Part shown: positions 223 through 12,999 of the stretch, one piece after another
How the letters are laid out: each line of letters opens with the position of its first letter
How positions within the stretch are numbered: position 1 is the stretch's first letter
DNA from: Candidatus Poribacteria bacterium
GTDB lineage: Bacteria; Abyssobacteria; SURF-5
Length of the DNA stretch: 27,249 bases
Reading direction: 5' to 3'
Assembly (NCBI GenBank): GCA_016215705.1
Contig: JACRIR010000096.1
Location: 1-27,249, forward strand
The notes under the pieces: generated by a model
The model's input: only the letters and a program-made list of their open reading frames with translations
Database searches by the model: none
What the model was told of the DNA's origin: nothing
Program-made: the position numbers and the translations under genes

Positions 223-1374
223 TCACCATTCAATGGATATTCTGTATATTGCCCACTGCGAGTCTGGCTCTGGTTGCGAAGTGTTCCTCACTCCACATAC
301 AAGGTCAGTGTCCGATATCCAATCGAAGCATTCCAAAGACTCCCCGTCCTTGGAAATCCAAAATAGACGCCTTGTCTCGATTTCGTAAACGCCAATGACT
401 TTTCGAGCAGACTCCGAGCCATTCATACAAGTTTCGAACGCCAAATACTTGCTGCTCGGTGACCACTTTGCCTCAAGTATGCGCTGCGAAGTTGCGTAGA
501 CTTGCAGTGGAAGTCCCTTGATACTTGACATCGAGAGACCCTCTTTGCGGTGGTCGGTATCCCAGGGATCGCCAATCGAGTACGAGTACATAAAGAGGTA
601 TTTGTTCGGAGACCATTCCACAGAGTTAGGATAGACCCTTTTTTCCACCTTCCACAGGGTCTTGCGATAGCCGGGTCTGGCTAAATCAAATTCTCTCAGC
701 TCAGTTCGGTTTCCCCGTCGTGAAAAATACCGGACGGAATCGCCGTCCCTTCCGAATGCGACGCCCAAGAGCCTCGCATCGGGAATGGGAAAGTGCTGAA
801 GATTGTCGGACCGCAAATAACTAAGCAAATAAATCCCGGCACCTTTAAGCACTGACCTGCCGGGACTATAGTTGGCGAAACCCTGCAAAAGCATTGCATC
901 GCTCTGAGTGGATAGGTCATAATCAACCACATAAAAGCCCTCAGGGCTGATAGGTTCGATGCTCCCCGTTTCAGTGTCAAAAGAATACAGCATGCGGAAT
1001 TCGACAGGATTTGTTTGGCCTTTCAGGACATACTTCAAGAAGTAAACTTTCCGTGAGCCTTCCGGCCACTTACAATCTCGCGATGTCCAAAAAGCCTCGG
1101 TGAAGGTGACCTCCTTTTCAACGCTTGTCTCTCCTTGGAGATCCATAACAATGAACGACCCTCGCGCTGAATTCGGATCACCGCCCTCGGGTGGCTTCGC
1201 TCGGCTGCCGAAAACCTTCCCACTGTATCTTGAGTATTTGAGAGACATGATCTGTTGACCCGAGTAAGGAGTGATCGGTTTTGCCTCAAAATGCTTCACC
1301 CGCTCCCCAAACAGAAAGCCTCCATGGACGCTAATCAACAATGGAACGAGAACTATCAAAACTGCCTTTTTCAT
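223..1374 (-). CDS. Secreted TolB-like beta-propeller protein, unknown function
   Basis: The product is 383 residues. It begins with a typical Sec signal peptide (MKKAVLIVLVPLLISVHGG, then FLFGERV) and has no lipobox cysteine, so a soluble exported protein is expected. Recurrent blade-like motifs such as VEWSPNKYLFMYSYS, AKWSPSSKYLAFETC and FDWISDTDLVCGV resemble the WSPDG..LAF repeats of TolB/WD40-like beta-propellers. No catalytic motif is visible. The ATG overlaps the stop of the upstream RHS gene (ATGA), so the two are probably cotranscribed and translationally coupled. That is the position an immunity or processing partner of an RHS tip would occupy, but a seven-bladed exported protein is not a classical immunity protein. 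It could also be an unrelated periplasmic binding propeller. The fold assignment is moderately sure; the role is unknown. Confidence 0.75.
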   Translation of the reverse strand: MKKAVLIVLVPLLISVHGGFLFGERVKHFEAKPITPYSGQQIMSLKYSRYSGKVFGSRAKPPEGGDPNSARGSFIVMDLQGETSVEKEVTFTEAFWTSRDCKWPEGSRKVYFLKYVLKGQTNPVEFRMLYSFDTETGSIEPISPEGFYVVDYDLSTQSDAMLLQGFANYSPGRSVLKGAGIYLLSYLRSDNLQHFPIPDARLLGVAFGRDGDSVRYFSRRGNRTELREFDLARPGYRKTLWKVEKRVYPNSVEWSPNKYLFMYSYSIGDPWDTDHRKEGLSMSSIKGLPLQVYATSQRILEAKWSPSSKYLAFETCMNGSESARKVIGVYEIETRRLFWISKDGESLECFDWISDTDLVCGVRNTSQPEPDSQWAIYRISIEW

Positions 1375-4061
1375 ATAGAATACCCGCTCCCAACGAGGTC
1401 ATCCGTATCGTCGGTTTCTCCAGTTGTGCATCCAATCAGGCAGCCATGTTCACAGCTTAGATAGAGATTCAATGCAGTGTACGTCATGATCGCACAGCAG
1501 CAAGCGTAGCAGGTGTCAAAGGGAGTTTCGCCACATACGGGTGTACACTCCCGTCTTATAATTGTAAGATCATCGTTAGTCATGCAGATAAGCCTGGAAA
1601 TTGTTCTGAGAAGCTGCAATGCCTGGTTTATGTTTCCTTGCCTTAGTAAGTCGTATATCCTTCCCATCGTCTCCTTCACGATCAATCTGGTTTCTGGATC
1701 CTTCAGTGGGTCGCAGTCCTCGGATTTCATCCCCATTGGATCAATCATCATGATTGGCATGTTTCTAACGTAAATATACAAGTTACTATCAGAAATAGGG
1801 TCTCTGCTCAGAAACCTTCCAATTGCGGGGTCGTAGTACCTCGCCCGATAGTAGTATAGGCCGCTATCATAGTCGTACTCTCTGCCTGTGTACGTAAAGG
1901 GATTGGAAAGAATGCCCGATTGTGAGACGATTCTGCCGTAGGCCAAGTAATCATAACTTTGCACGACAGTTTGATCTGAATCTGTCATCTTGTAAATGCT
2001 TCTGAGGACATCTGAATGGTACCAATACATCCGCCCACCTTGATACATACTTACGGGCTGGTCCGTCCCTAAACTCTGGACATAACTCGTTACGAGGCTA
2101 TTCCCTCCATCATATTCCGTGACTAAGTTGTGTCCATCATAGACATATCGGCTCATGTTACCGCTCCGGTCGCGCTTCTCAATCCTTCTGCCGAGGGGAT
2201 CATACTTGTATGCAGAGTAAGTCTCATCGGGATAATCTATCCGCGTGATCTTGTTCTCACAGTCAAAAGTGTATGTCGTGTCATTCGTTTCGTTCTCGGT
2301 CTTCTTGGTCAGGTTGCCGTTCTTGTCGTAGGTGAAGGTGATGCTGTCGTAGGATGCAAGTTGGTTGTTGGTATTGTAAGAGTAGTCTGAGTAATCGGTG
2401 TCGATCGTTCTGTTACCCACGCCGTCGTAGCTGAAAGTTTCAAGCGTCTCGGTGGTTGGCTCAAGCTGGTAGACCTCAGTTATTTCGTAGACGTTGTCGT
2501 AGGTGTATTTGAGCGCTTGCGCGGTCACCGCGCTTCCGGCGGTTGTGCGTTTGGTCCGGTTTTCCGTCTTATCATGCTCGTATGTGAAACTGGACAGCAC
2601 GCTGTCATCGGATTTTTTGTTTGCCAACAGCGTCAACCGATTCGCCTCGTCATACGAATACGCAGCCTTCGTTCCGTTGCCGTAAGTCCGGAGCGTGAGT
2701 CTCCCGCCGTCGTCATAATAATAGTTTGTGGCGTTGTTGTAGACATCCGTGATGCTCGCCACTTGATTGATGAGCGTATACGTATACGCATTTGCGATGT
2801 CATCCGGACCGGTCATAGCTGTCCGGTTGCCGACTGGATCGTAGGCATAGGCGATGGTCTTGCTTGGATTCGACTCGATTTGCTGGGTTGTGCTGGTCAT
2901 ATGATAGAGGTTATCGTAGTCAAACGTGACCGCGCTATCGCTGTCCGTGGCCGATGTCATGTTACCTATTTTATCATAAGCAAACGTGGCTGTGCCACTC
3001 CCGGGATACGTTTTCTGCGTCAAGTGGTTCAGAGCGTCATAGGCGTATTGTATTTGAGCGCCGTTGCAGTCGGTCTTGAGGGTCAGGTTCCCGTTGGCGT
3101 CATACGCGAATGTTTCGTAGTCGTTGTTGGGATACGTTATCCTTGTGACGGCGCTTCCAGTTCCGCCACATCCGCAGCCCACACCGAATTCGTACGCGAA
3201 GTACGTGGGGTTGTTCCTCGCATCCGTCATCCGCGTCATGTTGCCTATCTGGTCATACGCGAAGTTCGTCTGCTGATTGAGCGCGTCGGTCACCCGCGTC
3301 ACTTTACCGCGCCAATCGAACTCATATACCGTGTCTTTGCCTTCCTGATCAGTCACCTTTGTGCGGTTGCCGATGCGGTCGTACTCATACGTCACGTAGT
3401 TATCGAGGTGATCAGTTATCTTCGTGAGCCGGTTTATCGCGTCATACTCGAAAGTGGTCGTGTTGTTGTTGCCGTCCGTCGCCGACGTGCGGTTGCCATT
3501 GGCGTCGTATGCATACGCAGTTACATTGTTCTCGGCATCAGCCACCGCCGTGAGTTGCCCGTAGTCATCATACCCGTAATACGTCGTGTTATTGTTCGCG
3601 TCCGTCGCCAACGTGCGATTGCCTATGCCGTCATAGGCGTAGTTGGTCTCATTTTCCGATTCATCCGCGGCCCGCGTCAGGTTGCCATTGGCGTCGTAAT
3701 AGTAATACGTTTGCCGGTTGAGCGGGTCGAGAACGCTTTCCACCTGCCCGAAGCTGTTATGCGTATAGTCCGTAATGATGTTTCCCGGCTTTGTCTCGCG
3801 CGTCATGTTGTAACTGTCGTCGTACTCGTAGTAGAAATTGTGCCCGCGACCGTCAGTCATGCGGGTCTTGTTGCCGTTGGCGTCGAAGAAGTAATAAGTG
3901 TTTATCCCGTTCATGTCGGTCTTCTGGGTCACCCGGTAATTCGCGTCGTAGTAGTACGAACTCGTCCGTCCCCTGGCGTCCGTATAATCCGTCTGGCTCG
4001 ACGAGGGATAAGCAATGGTGTCATATGTCGAGTCGGGATACGTCACCCTGGCGCATTTCAT
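1371..4061 (-). CDS. RHS/YD-repeat protein with cysteine-rich C-terminal tip; probably 5'-truncated
   Basis: The product is 896 residues with about 28 YD repeats (YDANGNLT, YDRIGNRT and similar) filling residues ~1-650. A conserved RHS core region follows (GREYDYDSGLYYYRARYYDP, then GRFLSRDPI and NLYIYVRNMP) ending at DPMG near residue 777. The last ~119 residues form a separate tip with 11 cysteines, including ECTPVC, CYACCC and CEHGCLIGC. I do not recognise this tip. In RHS proteins the C-terminal tip is usually the variable effector domain. No signal peptide, PAAR or other N-terminal module is present, and the first ATG has no ribosome binding site. The frame stays open 19 codons upstream and reads RHS-like sequence (GYQWVYYYPPYS) to a TGA at 4119-4121. 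This looks like the remnant of a longer gene, or one with an undetected start. Full-length RHS proteins are generally much longer. Confidence 0.85.
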   Translation of the reverse strand: MKCARVTYPDSTYDTIAYPSSSQTDYTDARGRTSSYYYDANYRVTQKTDMNGINTYYFFDANGNKTRMTDGRGHNFYYEYDDSYNMTRETKPGNIITDYTHNSFGQVESVLDPLNRQTYYYYDANGNLTRAADESENETNYAYDGIGNRTLATDANNNTTYYGYDDYGQLTAVADAENNVTAYAYDANGNRTSATDGNNNTTTFEYDAINRLTKITDHLDNYVTYEYDRIGNRTKVTDQEGKDTVYEFDWRGKVTRVTDALNQQTNFAYDQIGNMTRMTDARNNPTYFAYEFGVGCGCGGTGSAVTRITYPNNDYETFAYDANGNLTLKTDCNGAQIQYAYDALNHLTQKTYPGSGTATFAYDKIGNMTSATDSDSAVTFDYDNLYHMTSTTQQIESNPSKTIAYAYDPVGNRTAMTGPDDIANAYTYTLINQVASITDVYNNATNYYYDDGGRLTLRTYGNGTKAAYSYDEANRLTLLANKKSDDSVLSSFTYEHDKTENRTKRTTAGSAVTAQALKYTYDNVYEITEVYQLEPTTETLETFSYDGVGNRTIDTDYSDYSYNTNNQLASYDSITFTYDKNGNLTKKTENETNDTTYTFDCENKITRIDYPDETYSAYKYDPLGRRIEKRDRSGNMSRYVYDGHNLVTEYDGGNSLVTSYVQSLGTDQPVSMYQGGRMYWYHSDVLRSIYKMTDSDQTVVQSYDYLAYGRIVSQSGILSNPFTYTGREYDYDSGLYYYRARYYDPAIGRFLSRDPISDSNLYIYVRNMPIMMIDPMGMKSEDCDPLKDPETRLIVKETMGRIYDLLRQGNINQALQLLRTISRLICMTNDDLTIIRRECTPVCGETPFDTCYACCCAIMTYTALNLYLSCEHGCLIGCTTGETDDTDDLVGSGYSI

Positions 4062-4226: not shown

Positions 4227-5249
4227 TTATGGCTCCGGGTTCGACGTGATCGGGTCTGTAACGAGCTCCGAGTTAGGCTTCAGGAAATGTTCCTCGAAGT
4301 GGCGCCACTCGGAGTCGTCCATTTCCCATTCGCAATAGAGGGAGACGCCTTCGTAGGTTTCGGGAATGGAATAATATCGGTCGAGACCGGCATGCACTCC
4401 GAGGAGCGCGTTCTCAAGGTTTTCGATTTTGGGATTGTGGTAGCCGCTGTCGGCATCGTGGTACGTGGGGAGGCCGAGAAGAATCTTTGCGCCCTTGCTC
4501 CAACCGATTGTTTTGCGCGTCCATTCGGCCATGAGATTGCGGTAGAGTTTCTTGTTGGGCAAAGCGGTATCGTACATCATGACGGCAATCAGGTCGCATC
4601 GCGCCGCGACCTCTTTGTAGTATCCTTTGTTCCAATGAACGTCGGGATAGGGATGCAATAGGGTGGATGGAGGATAGGCGGCGATCGAGAGAGTCCTGCC
4701 TTGGGGCATTTGTCGGCGCACCTCTTCGAGGAGAGCGAGAAATGGCTGGTTTCCCGACCGCATCGGCTCGATGTTTATGTGGATTCCGGAAGCAGCGGGA
4801 TACTCGCGCAGAAACTTTCCGATGGATTTGGCGAAGTTCTCGCGCCAGGCAGGATTATTGAGGAAGACCTGTTTGCCTTCAATGCCGCCGACCCACGGCA
4901 TGACCTTGAACCGGCTGAAGACTCCGAAGAACCGGCGTGCCTGCTCCGGATCAATAAATGAAAGGTCTCCCTCCGTTGAAGTGGGCGCCATGTGCGGGAA
5001 TATATATAGGATGTGGCGCTCGCGCAGCGAAGCCGCAAGCGTTTCCAGGTTTTTGAGGCTCCGAAAATATTGTATTTGAACCTCTTTCCCATTGCGCGAA
5101 AACCAACTGTCGTCGCCAAGCCATCCGTGCTGAAGCCAAATTCCGTTGCGAAGCCGATCGTTATGGCCGTCGCGCACGTCCTTCCCCGGCTCCCATATTC
5201 TGTAGCCGACCAATAAGAGGACGAGCAGAACGATTGAGGCGGAGAACAT
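4227..5249 (-). CDS. Membrane-anchored GH18-like TIM-barrel protein with altered catalytic motif
   Basis: The chosen ATG at 5249 gives 340 residues beginning MFSASIVLLVLLLVGYRIW, a one-helix membrane anchor with the rest predicted outside the cytoplasm. A TTG 44 codons upstream would extend the frame, but that extension is low-complexity (repeated TTTGGATTTTGGAT-type DNA) and has no ribosome binding site, so it is probably spacer. The body resembles the GH18 chitinase-like barrel: a strand SGIHINIEP where the family has DGxDxDxE, then LIAVMMYDTA, ILLGLPTYHD and a late strand VSLYCEWEMDDSEW. The glutamate at the proton-donor position is kept, but the two inner aspartates are His and Asn. It may be a divergent glycosidase acting on amino sugars, or a non-catalytic binder. 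It lies 166 bp upstream of the RHS frame on the same strand. Confidence 0.7.
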   Translation of the reverse strand: MFSASIVLLVLLLVGYRIWEPGKDVRDGHNDRLRNGIWLQHGWLGDDSWFSRNGKEVQIQYFRSLKNLETLAASLRERHILYIFPHMAPTSTEGDLSFIDPEQARRFFGVFSRFKVMPWVGGIEGKQVFLNNPAWRENFAKSIGKFLREYPAASGIHINIEPMRSGNQPFLALLEEVRRQMPQGRTLSIAAYPPSTLLHPYPDVHWNKGYYKEVAARCDLIAVMMYDTALPNKKLYRNLMAEWTRKTIGWSKGAKILLGLPTYHDADSGYHNPKIENLENALLGVHAGLDRYYSIPETYEGVSLYCEWEMDDSEWRHFEEHFLKPNSELVTDPITSNPEP

Positions 5250-5445
5250 TCCCCACAGGGGGTCGAGAGGCCTGGGGAATTTTGGATTTTGGATCCCCGA
5301 TCGGAGTCGAGGACATTTTTCGGATTTCGGATTGGAAGAAGCCAAATCGTCACTCCGTAGGGTCAATGGGCCGTGACCCAAAGGGGGAAAAGAGTCGTTT
5401 TCATTTTACGGTATCGCACCCTCGATTGCAAGCATATTTATGTTC

Positions 5446-6298: not shown

Positions 6299-6940
6299 AT
6301 GGGACTAGTGCGAGCTTCAAAGATCGGTAGAAACTCTGCCGTTGTTCTGGCGTTGTTTTTGGCCAGTTTGGTGACTTTCCATTTTCTTGGACGGAAAGTC
6401 TTGCCCCGCTTGATGTACACGACGCATGCCCAGCCGGTTGATTTCAACCATGTGTTTCATGGAGGCGACGTGGGTGTCACGTGTGACACCTGTCACTTCT
6501 TTTACGAAAACGGCAACTGGTCCGGCATTCCGACGCTGGAGGTTTGCGCCGGCTGTCACAGTGACGTGGTCGGTGAGTCAGCCGCCGAGAAGAAGTTTGT
6601 GAACGAGTATGTCAAGAAGAATCGGGAGGTTCCGTGGGGCCTGTACTTCCGGCAGCCTCAATGTGTCTCATTTTCGCATTCGTCTCACGTGAGAAGGGCG
6701 AAGCTTGCGTGCGAGACATGCCACGGTCCGCAGGGGTTATCCAAACGGCCCAAGAAATACATGACCAACTGGATCACCAAATACACGTATGTCGTCTATG
6801 ACAACAATGCCGCCCCGAACGGTTCTTCCGCTGTGAACGGCGAAAACAAAGACGTGTGGGGAACCATGACCATGAACCAGTGCGCGAATTGTCACCGGGC
6901 TCGAGGCACAAGCACTGCGTGTTTTATTTGTCATAAATGA
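6299..6940 (+). CDS. Membrane-anchored pentaheme cytochrome c, QrcA-like subunit
   Basis: The 213-residue product has an uncleaved N-terminal helix (residues ~13-32, AVVLALFLASLVTFHFLG) and a periplasmic part with five CxxCH heme motifs: CDTCH (62-66), CAGCH (83-87), CETCH (138-142), CANCH (195-199) and CFICH (208-212). Histidines in FNHVFH and FSHSSHV are likely distal ligands. It opens a tight operon with a molybdopterin-family protein, a four-cluster Fe-S protein and an NrfD-type membrane protein, the order of the Qrc menaquinone reductase. There it would accept electrons from periplasmic cytochromes. The described Qrc cytochrome has six hemes; here five motifs are visible. The pentaheme ActA of alternative complex III is a related alternative. 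Only AAGG at 6281, rather far from the ATG, resembles a ribosome binding site. Confidence 0.85.
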   Translation: MGLVRASKIGRNSAVVLALFLASLVTFHFLGRKVLPRLMYTTHAQPVDFNHVFHGGDVGVTCDTCHFFYENGNWSGIPTLEVCAGCHSDVVGESAAEKKFVNEYVKKNREVPWGLYFRQPQCVSFSHSSHVRRAKLACETCHGPQGLSKRPKKYMTNWITKYTYVVYDNNAAPNGSSAVNGENKDVWGTMTMNQCANCHRARGTSTACFICHK

Positions 6941-6967
6941 ACGACCAGAAGAAATAATAACAAGAAA

Positions 6968-9358
6968 ATGAACATTGACCGCAGAAAATTCGTCAAGGCT
7001 CTGGCGCTTGCCGGCGGAGGCGCCGTGGGACTGATCACCTCACCGCTGCCGTGGCAAGTCATCCGGGACCTTGCCCGATGGACGCAGAACTGGCCATGGG
7101 TTCCTGTGCCCGCGCAAGGGAAACCATCGCAAGAGAAAACCATTTGCGGGATGTGTGAAGGCGGCTGCGGACTGAATGTCAGGAAAGTCGGCCGTCGGCT
7201 GGTGCGCATCGAGGGAGACAGGAATCACCCTGTCAACCGCGGCTCGGTTTGCCCGCTCGGGACAGCGGGTTTGCAGTCGCTTTATGGGCCATCGCGAATC
7301 AAAGAGCCCTTGAAGCGGGAAGGCGCAAGAGGAAGCGGGAAGTGGAAGCCCGTTTCCTGGGAAGAAGCGATAGGGGAAGTGGCCGGAAGAATCAAGGCGC
7401 TTCACGAGACGAAGGAATCGCACAGTCTTGCCTGCATCACCAGCAGTTCCGAAAGCACGGTAAACCAGCTTTTTGAGCGTTTCCTCCAGACAGTGGGCTC
7501 GCGCAACTACGCAAGAGTCAACACAGGAAAGGATCTCCGCAACATAGCGCTCAAGGTCATGCAGGGTGTCGACGGCAACATGGCCTATGATTTTGAGAAT
7601 GCCAACCTGATCTTGAGCTTCGGTTGTTCGTTGTTGGAAGGATGGGGCACTTGCGGGAGAATGTACCGGACGTTCTCCGAGTGGTCTGCCGACGGTCGAA
7701 GCCATGCAGAGATTATTCAGGTTGAACCCAATCTTTCGATGACGGCGTCAAAAGCGTCCCAATGGGTACCGATTGCGCCCGGCACGGAGGCCGCGCTGGC
7801 GCTCGGAATCGCGCACGTGCTGATTAGAGACGGCCTTTACGACGAGGAGTTCGTCGAGGAGCATTGTTTCGGTTTTGATGATTGGAAAGGCGCCGACGGA
7901 AAGCAGCATAGCGGTTTCAAGTCCGAAGTTCTGGCGAATTACTCGCCCTCTTCGGTGGAACAGATTACAAAGGCGCCCGCAAAGATGATTGAGGAAGTCG
8001 CCCGGAGATTCGGTGAGAGCGAATCTGCGCTCGCTGTATGCGGAAAGGGCGATGGGGACTTTTTCGTTGACCTCTATGAGGTAATGTCAATACACAGCCT
8101 CAACGCTCTGAAAGGCAACATAAACAAGCAGGGCGGAGTGCTTGTCAAGCCCGATGCGCCGGTTGCGCCACTTCCTTCTCCCATTATGGATGAGGAGGCG
8201 CAGAGGGGGTATGCGGTTGAGAGACTCGATGGAGCGGGAAGCGCAAAATATCCCTTTACACGGCATTTGCCGGGAAACCTCAAGGCCGACAAGATCAAGG
8301 TGTTGTTCATACACGAGGCCAACCCATGGTACACGCTGCCGAACCAGCAGACGGCGCAAGAGATTTTCGAGAAAGTTCCCTACATAGTCAGCTTCTCTCC
8401 TTACATGGATGAGAGCGCAGCCAGGGCCGATCTGGTACTTCCTCTTCCGACCCGTTTCGAGAGGTGGGATGACAAGGTTGCGGCTCCCGAGCTGCAATAC
8501 GCAGTCTATAATTTGACAAAGCCCATCATTGAGCCGCTGTACCCGACAAAAAATGCCGGGGACATTCTTATTGAACTGGCGCGGCAGATAGGCGGAAGCA
8601 TTGCGGAATCTTTCCCGTGGGCCGACATGCATGAATTGCTCAAGATGAGGGCGGAGGGCCTGTATGACGCCAATACGGGAATGATAAACTCTTCGGAGGC
8701 CGTCGCCTCGACAGACGAGAGCCGCATTTCCGGCGTGTCCTTGTCGGCAAACTACTCATCTTTCTCCTCGATGTGGGAGAAGCTCCTCGAAAACAGTTGT
8801 TGGTTTAAGCCGGGATACGAATACGGCGCGCCGGAAAGGATTCTGAGAACTCCGAGCGGCAAGTTCGAGTTCTACAGTCAGCGGGTGCAGGAAGCGTTCC
8901 AGTTTGAAGAAGATGTCAAGTGCATGCCTCACTATGCCGAGCCTGCCGCGAATCCGGAGGGCTTCAATCTGATAATCATGCCGGAGAACATGCTTGTCAT
9001 GTCTGACAACGGGAGGGGCACGCCGCCATTCCTGATAAAGCAGTTGGATGATCACGTGCTGCGAGGCAACGACCTCTTTGTTCAGGTAAACCCGATAACT
9101 GCGATGTACCAGGGCTTGCGAGACGGGGACAGCGTAATGCTCGAGTCGCCCCGGGGAAAGGTCAAAGTCAAGTTGCACGCTTTCGAGGGAATTCGCGAGG
9201 GCGTGGCGCTGATACCTTTGGGGTTTGGTCATACTGCCTTCGATGAGTTCATTCGCGGCAAAGGCGTGAACGCGCAACAGATAATGACGTGCCGGGAGGA
9301 CTCTCTCACCGGTCTGCCAATCTGCTGGAGAACGCCGGGAAGAATCCGGAAAGCATGA
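6968..9358 (+). CDS. Tat-exported molybdopterin-oxidoreductase-family protein, QrcB-like subunit
   Basis: The 796-residue product begins with a twin-arginine signal (DRRKFVKALALAGGG). A complete [4Fe-4S] motif follows: C60, C63, C67 and C95 (ICGMCEGGCG, then VCPLG). The long body has family features such as WVPIAPGTEAALALG and LVLPLPTRFERWDD, and a C-terminal beta-barrel of the molydopterin dinucleotide-binding type (~655-790). Two points argue against a Mo enzyme: the residue after CP is Leu where catalytic members usually have Lys or Arg, and no Cys, Ser or Asp is obvious at the metal-ligand region (YARVNTGKDLRNIALK). The Qrc large subunit is known as a family member without molybdenum, which fits. 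It starts 27 bp after the cytochrome gene and ends 7 bp before the Fe-S gene. Thiosulfate or polysulfide reductase is a less likely alternative. Confidence 0.85.
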   Translation: MNIDRRKFVKALALAGGGAVGLITSPLPWQVIRDLARWTQNWPWVPVPAQGKPSQEKTICGMCEGGCGLNVRKVGRRLVRIEGDRNHPVNRGSVCPLGTAGLQSLYGPSRIKEPLKREGARGSGKWKPVSWEEAIGEVAGRIKALHETKESHSLACITSSSESTVNQLFERFLQTVGSRNYARVNTGKDLRNIALKVMQGVDGNMAYDFENANLILSFGCSLLEGWGTCGRMYRTFSEWSADGRSHAEIIQVEPNLSMTASKASQWVPIAPGTEAALALGIAHVLIRDGLYDEEFVEEHCFGFDDWKGADGKQHSGFKSEVLANYSPSSVEQITKAPAKMIEEVARRFGESESALAVCGKGDGDFFVDLYEVMSIHSLNALKGNINKQGGVLVKPDAPVAPLPSPIMDEEAQRGYAVERLDGAGSAKYPFTRHLPGNLKADKIKVLFIHEANPWYTLPNQQTAQEIFEKVPYIVSFSPYMDESAARADLVLPLPTRFERWDDKVAAPELQYAVYNLTKPIIEPLYPTKNAGDILIELARQIGGSIAESFPWADMHELLKMRAEGLYDANTGMINSSEAVASTDESRISGVSLSANYSSFSSMWEKLLENSCWFKPGYEYGAPERILRTPSGKFEFYSQRVQEAFQFEEDVKCMPHYAEPAANPEGFNLIIMPENMLVMSDNGRGTPPFLIKQLDDHVLRGNDLFVQVNPITAMYQGLRDGDSVMLESPRGKVKVKLHAFEGIREGVALIPLGFGHTAFDEFIRGKGVNAQQIMTCREDSLTGLPICWRTPGRIRKA

Positions 9359-9365
9359 GGCTGTC

Positions 9366-10139
9366 ATGAAGAATGAATCATCCCGACCTGGCGTGCGATA
9401 CGCGATGGTCATTGACCTCGACAGATGCACCGGATGCGGCAACTGCGCGGTCGCCTGTCACATGGAGAACAACGTTTCGTTTCGGGTGGATGAGAGCGAC
9501 AAGTCGCGCAACATGGCGTGGCTTCGGATTTACAGGGTGACCAATGGAGAAGAATATCCCAACATCCGCGTCGCTCATTTTCCCCGGCCGTGCATGCAGT
9601 GTGACCGGCATACGCCGTGCGTGTCGGTCTGTCCTGCGAGCGCCACGAACTATGACGAGCACACGGGGCTCGTTGATCAGATAAATACTCGCTGTATCGG
9701 CTGCCGTTATTGCATGGCGGCGTGCCCGTATATGGTGCGTTGCTTCAACTGGTGGGACCCTGTCTGGCCCGCCGATATGGTGAAATATCTCAATCCCGAC
9801 GTCGCCCCCCGGATGCGGGGCGTCGTGGAGAAGTGCACGTTCTGTTCACACCGCTACACCAAAGCGAAAAACAAAGCTCATAATGAAGGCAGGAGTTATC
9901 TGGAAGAGGGCGAGTACGTGCCCGCTTGTGTCGAAGCATGCCCGTTGGGCGCTATGACTTTCGGCAACATGAATGATCCCGAGCATAAGATCGCCGGCCT
10001 CGTCAAGAGTCCGCGCGCGTTCAGGCTTCTGGAGAAACTGCACACGGAACCCAAAGTGTACTACTTGAGCTCGCAGGAATGGATCAGGCGATGGGCGGAT
10101 AACTATGCGCTGGATGTAAGACATTCGGGTGTGTCATGA
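9366..10139 (+). CDS. Four-cluster iron-sulfur subunit, QrcC-like
   Basis: The 257-residue protein belongs to the DmsB/PsrB/NrfC ferredoxin-like family. Four cysteine groups are visible: CTGCGNCAVAC (21-31), CMQCDRHTPCVSVC (76-89), CIGCRYCMAAC (110-120), and a split group CTFC (157-160) with CVEAC (188-192). The 16 cysteines would hold four clusters and wire the large periplasmic subunit to the membrane subunit. There is no signal peptide, so it is probably co-exported by the Tat signal of its partner. GAGG sits 5 bp before the ATG, made from the upstream stop region. The last four bases overlap the next gene (ATGA). Confidence 0.9.
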   Translation: MKNESSRPGVRYAMVIDLDRCTGCGNCAVACHMENNVSFRVDESDKSRNMAWLRIYRVTNGEEYPNIRVAHFPRPCMQCDRHTPCVSVCPASATNYDEHTGLVDQINTRCIGCRYCMAACPYMVRCFNWWDPVWPADMVKYLNPDVAPRMRGVVEKCTFCSHRYTKAKNKAHNEGRSYLEEGEYVPACVEACPLGAMTFGNMNDPEHKIAGLVKSPRAFRLLEKLHTEPKVYYLSSQEWIRRWADNYALDVRHSGVS

Positions 10140-11374
10140 GTTCGGCTAACGAATTACCACAACTTGAGCGATGCTCGAATAAGAAGTTCCTTCTGTGGAT
10201 TTCTTTTTGGGCGTTGCTGCTGCTATGGGGATTGTTCGGGGCATTCCTTTGTCTGTTCAAGGGTTTGAACCAGACAGGCATGAATAACTATTTTGTCTTC
10301 GGACTGTGGATTACGGTCGATCTGGCCGTTATCGGCCTCGGCGCAGGCGCGTTTTTCAGTGGTTTTCTGTTTTACGTGCTCAAGGTTGATTACCTCAAGG
10401 AGTTGATAGGGGCAGCCGTTGTGATCGGTTTTATCTGCTACAGCGGGGCGGTAGGAATGCTGACAATAGACATAGGGCAGCCTTTGCGCGGCTATTTCAG
10501 TTTCTGGCATGCCAACGTGCATTCCATGCTGACCGAGGTGATCTTTTGCATAACCACTTACCTGTTTGTGCTGACCATCGAATTCGTCCCTCTCATAACA
10601 GAGAATAAGACGATTCGCGAAATCGCGTTCCTGAGGTATTTTGGCGAGAATCTGCACGGCATAATGGTCGTATTTGCGCTGGTTGGCACGTTCTTGTCGT
10701 TCTTCCACCAGGGGTCTCTCGGCGGGATGTTCGGAGTGCTTTTTGCCCGTCCGTTTTCTTACCGCTCGGGCATAGCGATCTGGCCATGGACATTTTTCCT
10801 CTCGATTCTGTCGGCCATCGCTGCGGGCCCCTCGCTAACGACATTGGTGGTCTGGACGACGCAGAAACTGACGGGCCGCCGCCTGGTGAGCAGGTCCACG
10901 CTATCGAGGCTTGCGAAACTGTCGGCAATTCTGCTGGTAGTCTATCTGGTTCTGAAGGCGGCTGATACAATCTACTGGGCTAATGTGACGGCGCCAAGTA
11001 TGGGATTCAAGTTCACAAGTTTCTATCGGCCTCCGTATGGCATGTGGCTGCTGTTCTGCGAATTCTACTTGTTCGGGCTGGTGCCGGCGATCATTCTATT
11101 GATACCAAAAGCGCGCGACACCGATTTCTGGCTGGTAATCGGCTGCCTGTTCACTTGCGCCGGGATAGTAATCAACCGTTTCTCGCTGGCTATTCAGACG
11201 TCAGCAATTCCGGTGCTGCCCTTCGAAAGATTTATGATTTATCATCCGACGTGGCAGGAATGGTCCATCGTGGGCGCTATCATTGGCTACGGCGTGATTG
11301 TGTTCTCGCTGGCGTATCGATACTTGCACTTGTTTCCGCGTGAACATGAGCTGAATGGATCAAATATTTCTTAG
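10136..11374 (+). CDS. NrfD/PsrC-family integral membrane subunit, QrcD-like
   Basis: The 412-residue protein is very hydrophobic with about ten membrane helices, starting at LWISFWALLLLWGLFGAFLC. Motifs such as GMLTIDIGQPLRGYFSFWH and SFFHQGSLGGMFG are typical of the NrfD/PsrC/ActC/QrcD group, which binds the quinone near the periplasmic face. In a Qrc-like complex it would reduce menaquinone with electrons from the Fe-S and cytochrome subunits. Its start overlaps the stop of the Fe-S gene by 4 bp, and the next gene starts 17 bp after its stop. Length fits the ten-helix branch rather than the eight-helix PsrC branch. Confidence 0.9.
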   Translation: MSSANELPQLERCSNKKFLLWISFWALLLLWGLFGAFLCLFKGLNQTGMNNYFVFGLWITVDLAVIGLGAGAFFSGFLFYVLKVDYLKELIGAAVVIGFICYSGAVGMLTIDIGQPLRGYFSFWHANVHSMLTEVIFCITTYLFVLTIEFVPLITENKTIREIAFLRYFGENLHGIMVVFALVGTFLSFFHQGSLGGMFGVLFARPFSYRSGIAIWPWTFFLSILSAIAAGPSLTTLVVWTTQKLTGRRLVSRSTLSRLAKLSAILLVVYLVLKAADTIYWANVTAPSMGFKFTSFYRPPYGMWLLFCEFYLFGLVPAIILLIPKARDTDFWLVIGCLFTCAGIVINRFSLAIQTSAIPVLPFERFMIYHPTWQEWSIVGAIIGYGVIVFSLAYRYLHLFPREHELNGSNIS

Positions 11375-11391
11375 GATGGGAGCGTCTACAT

Positions 11392-11601
11392 ATGTGGCCA
11401 ACCATATTTGAATTCAACTGGGACACCGGCCATATGATTTTTCTCGGAGTCTTTTACTCCGTGCTGATTGTCATAGCCACTGCGCTGGTGTATGTGTCCG
11501 CGCGATCAATCATCGAGACATTCAACGGCCATGAAGACGGTCATCATTCCGGCGCCGGCGCTGTGCCCGAAACGAGTGAAGAAATCGCCGGGAGCGACTA
11601 G
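11392..11601 (+). CDS. Small one-helix membrane protein, possible fifth subunit of the Qrc-like complex
   Basis: The 69-residue product has one membrane helix (residues ~16-38, MIFLGVFYSVLIVIATALVYVSA), a short N-terminal segment with FEFNWDTGH, and an acidic, His-rich C-terminal tail (HEDGHHSGAGA, then EEIAGSD). A purine-rich GGATGGGAG lies 10-18 bp before the ATG, a usable ribosome binding site. It begins 17 bp after the NrfD-family gene, so it is almost certainly in the same transcript. The described QrcABCD complex has four subunits, so this may be an accessory or assembly subunit comparable to small subunits of other respiratory complexes. I do not recognise a named family. Confidence 0.75.
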   Translation: MWPTIFEFNWDTGHMIFLGVFYSVLIVIATALVYVSARSIIETFNGHEDGHHSGAGAVPETSEEIAGSD

Positions 11602-11772
11602 GAGAGCGCTACTTAATTCTTATTGCAAAGCCCCTCTTTGAAAAAGGGGGACAAAGGGGAATTAAAGAAGTCGCGAAAGTCCTTGGGAACAAGAGTTCTA
11701 AATCCCCCGTTCCGCCCTTTGCAAAGGGGGAAACGTCGCCGAATCGATGCTATGTTATCTAAGAAACGTCAT
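11602..11772. repeat. About 165 bp repeat, copy 1, downstream of the Qrc-like operon
   Basis: Starting right after the stop codon of the 69-residue gene, this stretch shares long blocks with 13003-13170, notably AGTCCTTGGGAACAAGAGTT, TTGCAAAGGGGG, AACGTCGCC and ATGCTATGTTAT. It contains two stem-forming segments (CCCCTCTTTGAAAAAGGGGG and CCCTTTGCAAAGGG). It may act as a 3' end processing or termination region, although no U-tract follows. Edges are approximate. Confidence 0.8.
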
Positions 11773-11937: not shown

Positions 11938-12999
11938 ATGCGCCGCAAAAAGTGGGTTGGTTCGGGTCTTGCAGGACTCGTGATTGTCGGTATTCTTTCC
12001 GTCGCATTCGCGGCAGAGAAGGAACCGGCGAAAACAGACAAGCAGGGCAAGGAATGCGTTTATGTCGGCGTCAAGAAATGCGCATTCTGTCATGTCCGCC
12101 TCGATAATTCGCTCAGGACGTGGGTTATCACCAAGCACTCGCACGCGCGCGAGGTTTTACGGAGTCCCGAGGCCAAGAAATTCTCCCGCTCTCCGGATGA
12201 AGACCCCAAGTGTCTCAAGTGTCACATGACCGGCATGGCATCGGACCCCCTCCACTTTGGGAGTGTTCTCGACGATGAAACAACGCAGCAATTCCAGGGA
12301 GTTCAGTGCGAGATGTGTCATGGACCCGGCCAATTGTACAAGGGCGAGATGGCCAGGGCTTTGCCGGAGGGTCATGAACTGGACGAGCAGGAGTGCACGC
12401 GCAGAGGATTGGTAATTCCCAACGAGAAAACATGCCGCAAATGTCACAACGAAGAATGCCCGGTATTTCATGGTTTCGACTTTGAAAAGGCCGTCAAGCT
12501 GATTAAGCACAGCAAGCAGCAGCCAAAGTGCCAGTATATCGGCCAGGAGAAATGCACGTTCTGTCATGTGAAGGCCGATGAAACCGCCGGGACATGGGTT
12601 ATCCTGAAACATGTCAATTCGTTCTCGATTCTCAAGACCGACCTGGCCAAGAAGTTCTCAAAGGACCCCGTTCACGACGAGAAATGCCTCGAATGCCATT
12701 CTACGGGGTTGAATGCGCCGGGTGGCTACAAGATGGATGATCCGGCAAGCAAGAAACTGGAAGGCGTGCAATGTGAAATGTGCCACGGCTGGGGCTACAG
12801 CTACGTCGAAACGATGGCCAAGGCCAAGGTCCTCGACGTGTACGGCGTCAAAGATGACTGTGTCCGCCACGGGCTTGTGCTTCCGACTGAGCAGACATGC
12901 CGTAAATGCCACAACGAGCGCTGTCCGGTGTTCACAGGCTTCGATTTCGAAGCCAGTCTCAAACAACTCCAACACGGAGACGCTTTCAAGAAACATTAG
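11938..12999 (+). CDS. Periplasmic octaheme cytochrome c (two tetraheme c554-like halves)
   Basis: The start at 11938 is preceded by an excellent AAGGAGGT and gives 353 residues with a Sec signal peptide (MRRKKWVGSGLAGLVIVGIL, then SVAFAAE). The in-frame ATG 20 codons earlier lacks both. Eight CxxCH motifs are visible at C48, C92, C124, C166, C206, C250, C279 and C321. Residues ~41-190 and ~199-345 are clear copies: each runs Y(V/I)G..KC.FCHV, TWVI.KH, C..CH.TG, GVQCEMCHG, CRKCHNE.CPVF.GFDFE. The pattern resembles the cytochrome c554/c-prime family. The protein is probably a soluble electron carrier or a reductase, and being next to the Qrc-like operon makes it a candidate donor. No enzymatic signature beyond the heme motifs is visible. 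A ~165 bp repeat lies on each side of the gene. Confidence 0.9.
   Translation: MRRKKWVGSGLAGLVIVGILSVAFAAEKEPAKTDKQGKECVYVGVKKCAFCHVRLDNSLRTWVITKHSHAREVLRSPEAKKFSRSPDEDPKCLKCHMTGMASDPLHFGSVLDDETTQQFQGVQCEMCHGPGQLYKGEMARALPEGHELDEQECTRRGLVIPNEKTCRKCHNEECPVFHGFDFEKAVKLIKHSKQQPKCQYIGQEKCTFCHVKADETAGTWVILKHVNSFSILKTDLAKKFSKDPVHDEKCLECHSTGLNAPGGYKMDDPASKKLEGVQCEMCHGWGYSYVETMAKAKVLDVYGVKDDCVRHGLVLPTEQTCRKCHNERCPVFTGFDFEASLKQLQHGDAFKKH

What the first reader, a model, noticed from the sequence alone, without database searches (positions are those of the whole stretch)
6299..11601. Qrc-like menaquinone reductase operon with a pentaheme cytochrome and an extra one-helix subunit
The sequence shows, in one tight run, cytochrome, molybdopterin-family protein, four-cluster Fe-S protein and NrfD-family protein, the order of QrcABCD. 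It differs from the described complex in two ways: five rather than six CxxCH motifs, and a 69-residue single-helix protein with an acidic His-rich tail 17 bp after the NrfD gene. The small gene may define a five-subunit variant.
Basis: partly seen in the sequence, partly recalled or inferred. Interest (0 to 1): 0.6.

Follow-up and report, generated by a model that had tools for sequence, protein, structure and literature searches.

The report
Overlooked fifth gene of Qrc complex
The operon is a genuine Qrc menaquinone reductase, and the tiny one-helix protein behind it is not a local oddity: almost every genome searched that has this complex carries it, none searched without the complex does, and it looks like a missed fifth subunit of an energy-conserving enzyme of sulfate-reducing bacteria.

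Summary
In detail: qrcA, B, C, D and a 69-aa one-helix gene lie at 6299-11601, with 5 CxxCH in QrcA and a 17-bp gap before the small gene. Membership in Qrc is well supported: NCBIfam equivalog cut-offs are passed by QrcA, B and D, and QrcC is at 397.5 of 400. Two parts of the interpretation change. (1) Five CxxCH motifs are no deviation: all 66 full-length homologues in 80 loci, plus Desulfovibrio-type ones, have five. (2) The small gene does not define a variant. Among 395 Desulfobacterota genomes, QrcD is in 80 and the small gene in 79 of those same 80 (in the last, qrcD ends 126 bp from a contig end); none of the 315 genomes without QrcD has it. In 40 it follows qrcD; in 39 it lies elsewhere, yet is still kept. 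A second phylum repeats the pattern, with the helix fused to a GcvH-like domain. dN/dS is about 0.05-0.25; no Pfam, NCBIfam or PDB match. I propose a fifth Qrc subunit ('QrcE'), N-terminus periplasmic, stabilising QrcD/QrcA near the menaquinone site. The Qrc association is strong; physical membership and role are inferred. Docking by structure prediction was inconclusive.

The parts
6299..6940 (+). qrcA: N-terminally anchored pentaheme cytochrome c (5 CxxCH)
   Evidence: NCBIfam NF041781 186.1 bits, cut-off 180; 5 CxxCH also in all other full-length QrcA
6968..9358 (+). qrcB: molybdopterin-oxidoreductase-like subunit with twin-arginine signal and an intact CxxCxxxC...C motif
   Evidence: NCBIfam NF041783 488.6 bits, cut-off 440; next best PhsA 295.9; Cys 60/63/67/95
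9366..10139 (+). qrcC: four-cluster Fe-S subunit
   Evidence: NCBIfam NF041782 397.5 bits, cut-off 400; next best DsrO 161.6
10136..11374 (+). qrcD: NrfD/PsrC-family membrane subunit; the residues shown essential in D. vulgaris are kept (D62, Y102, S130, Y142)
   Evidence: NCBIfam NF041784 581.2 bits, cut-off 570; next best HmcC 87; residues by alignment of 116 QrcD against PMC13059093
11392..11601 (+). 'qrcE' (name proposed here): 69-aa single-helix protein, candidate fifth Qrc subunit
   Evidence: profile A3 co-occurs with QrcD in 79 of 80 Qrc genomes and 0 of 315 others; no Pfam, NCBIfam or PDB family
11392..11448 (+). conserved N-terminal motif M-x-P-x-x-F-E-[FW]-x-W-[DN]-x-x-H-x-x-F-x-G (residues 1-19), predicted on the periplasmic face
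   Evidence: alignment A3: M1, P3, E7, F17, G19 invariant in 31 sequences; K+R 0.16 per sequence here against 2.4 after the helix
11938..12999 (+). octaheme c554-family cytochrome (better start 11938, after AAGGAGG; the ORF list gives 11878); follows qrcE only in the Abyssobacteria 'type-a' operons
   Evidence: Pfam Cytochrome_C554; 8 CxxCH; homologues at the same place in G001 and G002 and in no other fetched locus

Best explanation
The locus encodes a Qrc complex (TpIc3-type cytochrome c:menaquinone oxidoreductase) plus a fifth, single-span membrane subunit, here called QrcE. SHOWN by sequence: QrcABCD identity; QrcE homologues are kept wherever QrcD is kept, in at least two phyla besides this one, whether or not the gene sits next to qrcD; they evolve under purifying selection. 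INFERRED: QrcE sits in the membrane with its short N-terminus (P-x-x-F-E-[FW]-x-W-D-x-x-H) on the periplasmic side and its charged, His-rich tail in the cytoplasm. It would pack on QrcD and/or the QrcA anchor helix near the periplasmic menaquinone pocket, stabilising the joint between the QrcABC head and QrcD, or shaping that pocket, while electrons come from periplasmic cytochrome and protons come up the QrcD channel from the cytoplasm.
For: Qrc identity: A, B, D over NCBIfam equivalog cut-offs and C 2.5 bits below; predicted QrcD fold nearest to ActC of alternative complex III. QrcE: after qrcD in 76 of 80 named loci; in 395 Desulfobacterota genomes QrcD in 80, QrcE in 79, all inside the 80, none in the 315 others (Fisher P about 1e-83 without correction for shared ancestry). 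39 of the 79 are unlinked, found with a profile built from copies near qrcD, and the 20 fetched lie among genes of other functions with no other NrfD gene seen nearby. In the phylum of G006 QrcD is in 6 of 80 and QrcE in 5 of those 6, none elsewhere; the sixth has a truncated QrcD. QrcD tree: linked/unlinked/fused labels need 4 changes, so linkage was altered more than once while the gene was kept. dN/dS 0.04-0.24 in the pairs that could be computed, linked and unlinked. Each of the two qrc operons per Abyssobacteria genome has its own QrcE. Topology: positive residues after the helix, and fusion of a GcvH-like domain there.
Against: Purified D. vulgaris Qrc is described as four subunits on gels, and qrcABCD in trans restored growth (PMC13059093); but a 6-7 kDa protein is easily missed, and an unlinked chromosomal copy would still be present in such a strain (not verified for D. 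vulgaris by name). Structure prediction of QrcD with QrcE gave the helix pLDDT of roughly 36-56, so no docking is shown. The unlinked state in half the genomes allows an assembly factor instead of a subunit. One genome (G007) has QrcD and no QrcE found, but it is a 2.1-Mb MAG whose tree neighbour G142 has an unlinked copy.
Confidence: 0.68

Rival explanations
1. QrcE is a dedicated assembly or stability factor for Qrc (inserting QrcD or QrcA, or delivering heme, Fe-S or metal through its His-rich tail), not a stoichiometric subunit.
For: Unlinked in 39 of 79 genomes; variable His-rich or acidic tails; four-subunit preparations are active (PMC13059093).
Against: The conserved part is the N-terminal motif and helix, not the tail; a single short helix has no evident binding or catalytic domain.
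Confidence: 0.2
2. Five-subunit variant of Qrc restricted to this lineage.
For: The small gene follows qrcD in all six operons of the three genomes held.
Against: Same family across Desulfobacterota and a further phylum; the pentaheme QrcA is general.
Confidence: 0.03
3. QrcE links Qrc to a cytoplasmic partner or regulates it; the helix is only an anchor.
For: In the Krumholzibacteriota-like phylum the helix is fused to a GcvH-like domain, presumably cytoplasmic.
Against: In nearly all other genomes the part after the helix is only about 10-40 residues and poorly conserved.
Confidence: 0.07
4. Chance companion: a conserved membrane microprotein unrelated to Qrc that shares its taxonomic distribution by ancestry.
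For: Shared ancestry inflates co-occurrence counts; no biochemical data.
Against: Adjacent or fused in many lineages of at least three phyla, duplicated with the operon, and exclusive to Qrc genomes even when unlinked. None of 389 genomes without QrcD had it (315, 74).
Confidence: 0.02

Closest known systems
QrcABCD of Desulfovibrio (Nitratidesulfovibrio) vulgaris
   Same: Gene order ABCD, family scores, essential QrcD residues, five CxxCH in Desulfovibrio-type QrcA
   Different: Described with four subunits; here a fifth gene is adjacent. Window QrcB keeps a four-Cys Fe-S motif that Desulfovibrio-type QrcB lack; the QrcD N100 equivalent is Gly92; the genome has two qrc operons and no dsrA over cut-off
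Alternative complex III (ActABCDEF)
   Same: QrcD fold is nearest to ActC; pentaheme cytochrome, molybdopterin-like and Fe-S parts
   Different: B and C are separate genes here (ActB is a fusion, PMC6303296); the QrcE profile has no match among solved chains, ACIII included
Unnamed 'novel protein family' next to qrcABCD in Blakebacterota and Orphanbacterota (PMC9727166)
   Same: An unannotated protein conserved beside qrcABCD, in FCB phyla; the GcvH-fused QrcE beside qrcD found here is a possible candidate
   Different: The paper gives no sequence in the text held, no function and no link to the Qrc of sulfate reducers; identity with QrcE not testable here
HmcD and other small proteins beside NrfD-family subunits
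   Same: A small one-helix protein coded after an NrfD-family gene (from memory, a lead only)
   Different: No NCBIfam or Pfam match of any QrcE to such a family

Membership tests
Qrc (menaquinone reductase) | QrcA equivalog NF041781 | tested here: met
   186.1 bits, cut-off 180
Qrc (menaquinone reductase) | QrcB equivalog NF041783 | tested here: met
   488.6 bits, cut-off 440
Qrc (menaquinone reductase) | QrcC equivalog NF041782 | tested here: inconclusive
   397.5 bits, cut-off 400; full length, next family 161.6
Qrc (menaquinone reductase) | QrcD equivalog NF041784 | tested here: met
   581.2 bits, cut-off 570; next family 87
Qrc (menaquinone reductase) | QrcD residues essential for menaquinone reduction in D. 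vulgaris (D70, Y110, S138, Y150) | tested here: met
   D62, Y102, S130, Y142; invariant in 116 QrcD; mutant data PMC13059093
Qrc (menaquinone reductase) | QrcB without redox cofactors | tested here: inconclusive
   An intact CxxCxxxC...C motif is present in the window and about 58 of 71 QrcB; whether a cluster binds needs biochemistry
Qrc (menaquinone reductase) | Cytochrome c3:menaquinone oxidoreductase activity, electrogenic, H+/e- = 1 | not testable with these tools
   needs purified complex
Alternative complex III | Fused molybdopterin-like and Fe-S subunit (ActB) | tested here: not met
   separate qrcB and qrcC ORFs
Polysulfide/thiosulfate reductase (Psr/Phs) | Best family score for the catalytic subunit | tested here: not met
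   PhsA 295.9 bits against cut-off 694; QrcB 488.6
QrcE family (proposed here) | Short one-helix protein with M-x-P...E...F-x-G motif, co-occurring with QrcD | tested here: met

The most novel reading that the evidence does not exclude
QrcE is an obligatory subunit of Qrc across phyla whose conserved periplasmic Glu, Trp and His close or tune the menaquinone site, so the published four-subunit account of how Qrc conserves energy is incomplete.
Probability: 0.28. Interest if true: 0.8.

Novelty: new variant of a known kind. Interest (0 to 1): 0.62.

Why it matters
[quoted passage not shown] A gene that is present in practically every Qrc genome and in no other searched, but has no family entry in the libraries searched here and is unlinked in the Desulfovibrio-type genomes that resemble the model organisms, would explain how a subunit was missed. 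It can be tested at once with existing mutant libraries and preparations, and it should be included in structure work.

Tried and rejected
Five versus six hemes as a variant trait: rejected, five CxxCH is general. Small gene as a lineage trait: rejected. Known family for the small protein: none in Pfam, NCBIfam or PDB sequences. Docking by structure prediction: to bring QrcD and QrcE into one chain I used loci where the two genes share a frame and read the single stop as Gly (alignment A5, L030 first; this fused chain is an artificial device, not a claimed protein); the QrcE helix came out with pLDDT about 36-56, so nothing is concluded about its position. Second possible hit in G005 (L105, E 3e-4): it overlaps the opposite strand of a long ORF and is probably chance. 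Paper searches for 'QrcE' found only quasi-reference electrodes in the rows listed; the 2010 Qrc paper is not held; the G20 fitness paper defines Qrc as four genes, Dde_2932-2935.

Full report
What is there. NCBIfam calls the first four QrcA, QrcB, QrcC and QrcD: A, B and D pass the equivalog cut-offs, C misses by 2.5 bits, and the next best family is far behind for each. QrcD keeps the residues that were shown by mutation to be essential in D. vulgaris (D70, Y110, S138, Y150, here D62, Y102, S130, Y142), and the fold predicted for a QrcD from this family (L030, 58% identical to the window's) is nearest to ActC of alternative complex III. So this is a Qrc operon. No tree against ActC or PsrC was built; the score gaps and gene order served instead.

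Where it is. The window's genome has 5.47 Mb in 270 contigs. Its nearest named relative is Candidatus Abyssobacteria SURF_17 (QrcD 84-85% identical). Only three genomes of this phylum are held, and each has two qrc operons. In the window's own genome the second operon is split at contig ends: C13 and C22 share an identical overlap inside qrcD. Every one of the six operons has its own small gene. dsrA does not reach the cut-off (37 of 393 bits), in line with the published SURF genomes, which have sat and aprAB but no dsrAB (PMC6121073).

Heme motifs. QrcA has five CxxCH in the window and in every full-length QrcA found: 66 in the named loci and 17 more loci including Desulfovibrio-type genomes, with some overlap between the sets. 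The literature states six hemes for QrcA (PMC8076601). I cannot resolve that difference, but it is not a feature of this window.

The small gene. A profile from the six Abyssobacteria proteins finds a short ORF at the 3' end of qrcD in 76 of 80 loci that were fetched with QrcD alone; one of them (L070) is on the opposite strand. The four without it are one contig end (L086) and L032, L035, L049. The genome of L032 has a copy on another contig. An alignment of 31 shows M1, P3, E7, F17 and G19 invariant, F6 and W10 nearly so.

Co-occurrence. In 395 genomes of the phylum of G003 (Desulfobacterota, judged from the names of the loci in it) QrcD is found in 80 and the small family in 79. The 79 are a subset of the 80; the odd one, G010, has qrcD 126 bp from a contig end. 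None of the 315 genomes without QrcD has it. In 40 genomes the gene follows qrcD by 14-440 bp measured between profile matches; in 39 it is elsewhere (a few of these lie on short contigs or beside truncated qrcD, so some may be assembly breaks). I fetched 20 of the unlinked ones: neighbours are YqeY-family, KsgA and MutS2-like genes in the Desulfovibrio-type genomes, and TatC, sugar-nucleotide and other genes elsewhere; no second NrfD-type complex was seen (neighbour names are from reading the translations, not from a family scan, and the organisms are unnamed, 'Desulfovibrio-type' being my reading of the sequences). The unlinked proteins keep a P-W-x(3,4)-H-x-x-F-F-like pattern and mostly a C-terminal His pair. 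dN/dS is 0.04-0.24 in the pairs with computable dS, for linked and unlinked copies alike. On a QrcD tree of 116 rows the states linked, unlinked and fused need four changes, so linkage was changed more than once while the gene was kept.

Second phylum. In the phylum of the Krumholzibacteriia MAG of L087, QrcD occurs in 6 of 80 genomes and the small family in 5 of those 6 and nowhere else; the sixth has a truncated QrcD. In four of them the small protein is the N-terminal helix of a 275-281-residue protein with a GcvH-like domain (Pfam GCV_H, E 4e-7 and 1e-8 for the two scanned); G409 has a similar but weaker case. The family lacks any Pfam, NCBIfam or PDB-sequence match. A 2022 paper reports an unnamed novel protein family beside qrcABCD in the FCB phyla Blakebacterota and Orphanbacterota (PMC9727166); it may be this family, but its sequence is not held.

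How it may work. The first 14 residues hold on average 0.16 Lys/Arg and 2.0 Asp/Glu, and the 20 residues after the helix 2.4 Lys/Arg; with the GcvH fusion this suggests N-terminus outside, C-terminus inside. The invariant Pro, Glu, the Trp and the common Asp and His would then lie at the periplasmic membrane face, the side of the menaquinone pocket between QrcC and QrcD (PMC6303296). I favour a structural subunit at that place. This step is inference: the docking attempt was inconclusive. The published purifications show four bands and the complementation used qrcABCD only (PMC13059093), which neither shows nor excludes a 6-7 kDa unlinked subunit.

Other differences of the window's Qrc. QrcB keeps Cys 60, 63, 67 and 95, as do about 58 of 71 QrcB, whereas Desulfovibrio-type QrcB do not; so the 'cofactor-free QrcB' of D. 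vulgaris may not be general. QrcD has Gly92 where 113 of 116 have Asn (N100 of the proposed proton path); three rows, the window's among them, have Gly (the other two are most likely the Abyssobacteria L020 and L021, since A2 shows Gly there in all Abyssobacteria rows). An octaheme c554-family cytochrome follows the small gene in the type-a operon of all three Abyssobacteria genomes and in no other fetched locus.

Noticed in passing
window 6968-9358 (QrcB residues 60, 63, 67, 95): QrcB keeps a complete CxxCxxxC...C Fe-S motif, as do about 58 of 71 QrcB; Desulfovibrio-type QrcB lack it, so the cofactor-free QrcB of the model organism may be a derived state.
   Followed up: partly
window 10136-11374 (QrcD Gly92): The Asn of the proposed proton path (N100 in D. 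vulgaris) is Gly in the window and two other QrcD of a set of 116, Asn in the remaining 113.
   Followed up: partly
window 11938-12999: Octaheme c554-family cytochrome (two tetraheme-like halves) behind qrcE, conserved in the type-a qrc operon of three Abyssobacteria genera only.
   Followed up: partly
L009 2565-7431, L010 and L002: A second qrc operon in the same genome, split across two contig ends with an identical overlap, with its own QrcE of 93 aa.
   Followed up: yes
L087:1385-2212, L104, L207-L209: QrcE helix fused to a GcvH-like domain with a conserved Cys/His-rich linker, directly after qrcD, in a Krumholzibacteriota-like phylum.
   Followed up: partly
whole genome G000: No dsrA over cut-off although two Qrc complexes are present; what Qrc feeds in these organisms is open.
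   Followed up: partly
window 11620-11720: A G-rich and C-rich inverted-repeat-like stretch between qrcE and the octaheme cytochrome gene; not analysed.
   Followed up: no
window 1371-4061 (-): Protein with RHS repeats beside a GH18-family gene (4227-5381, -), upstream of the operon.
   Followed up: no
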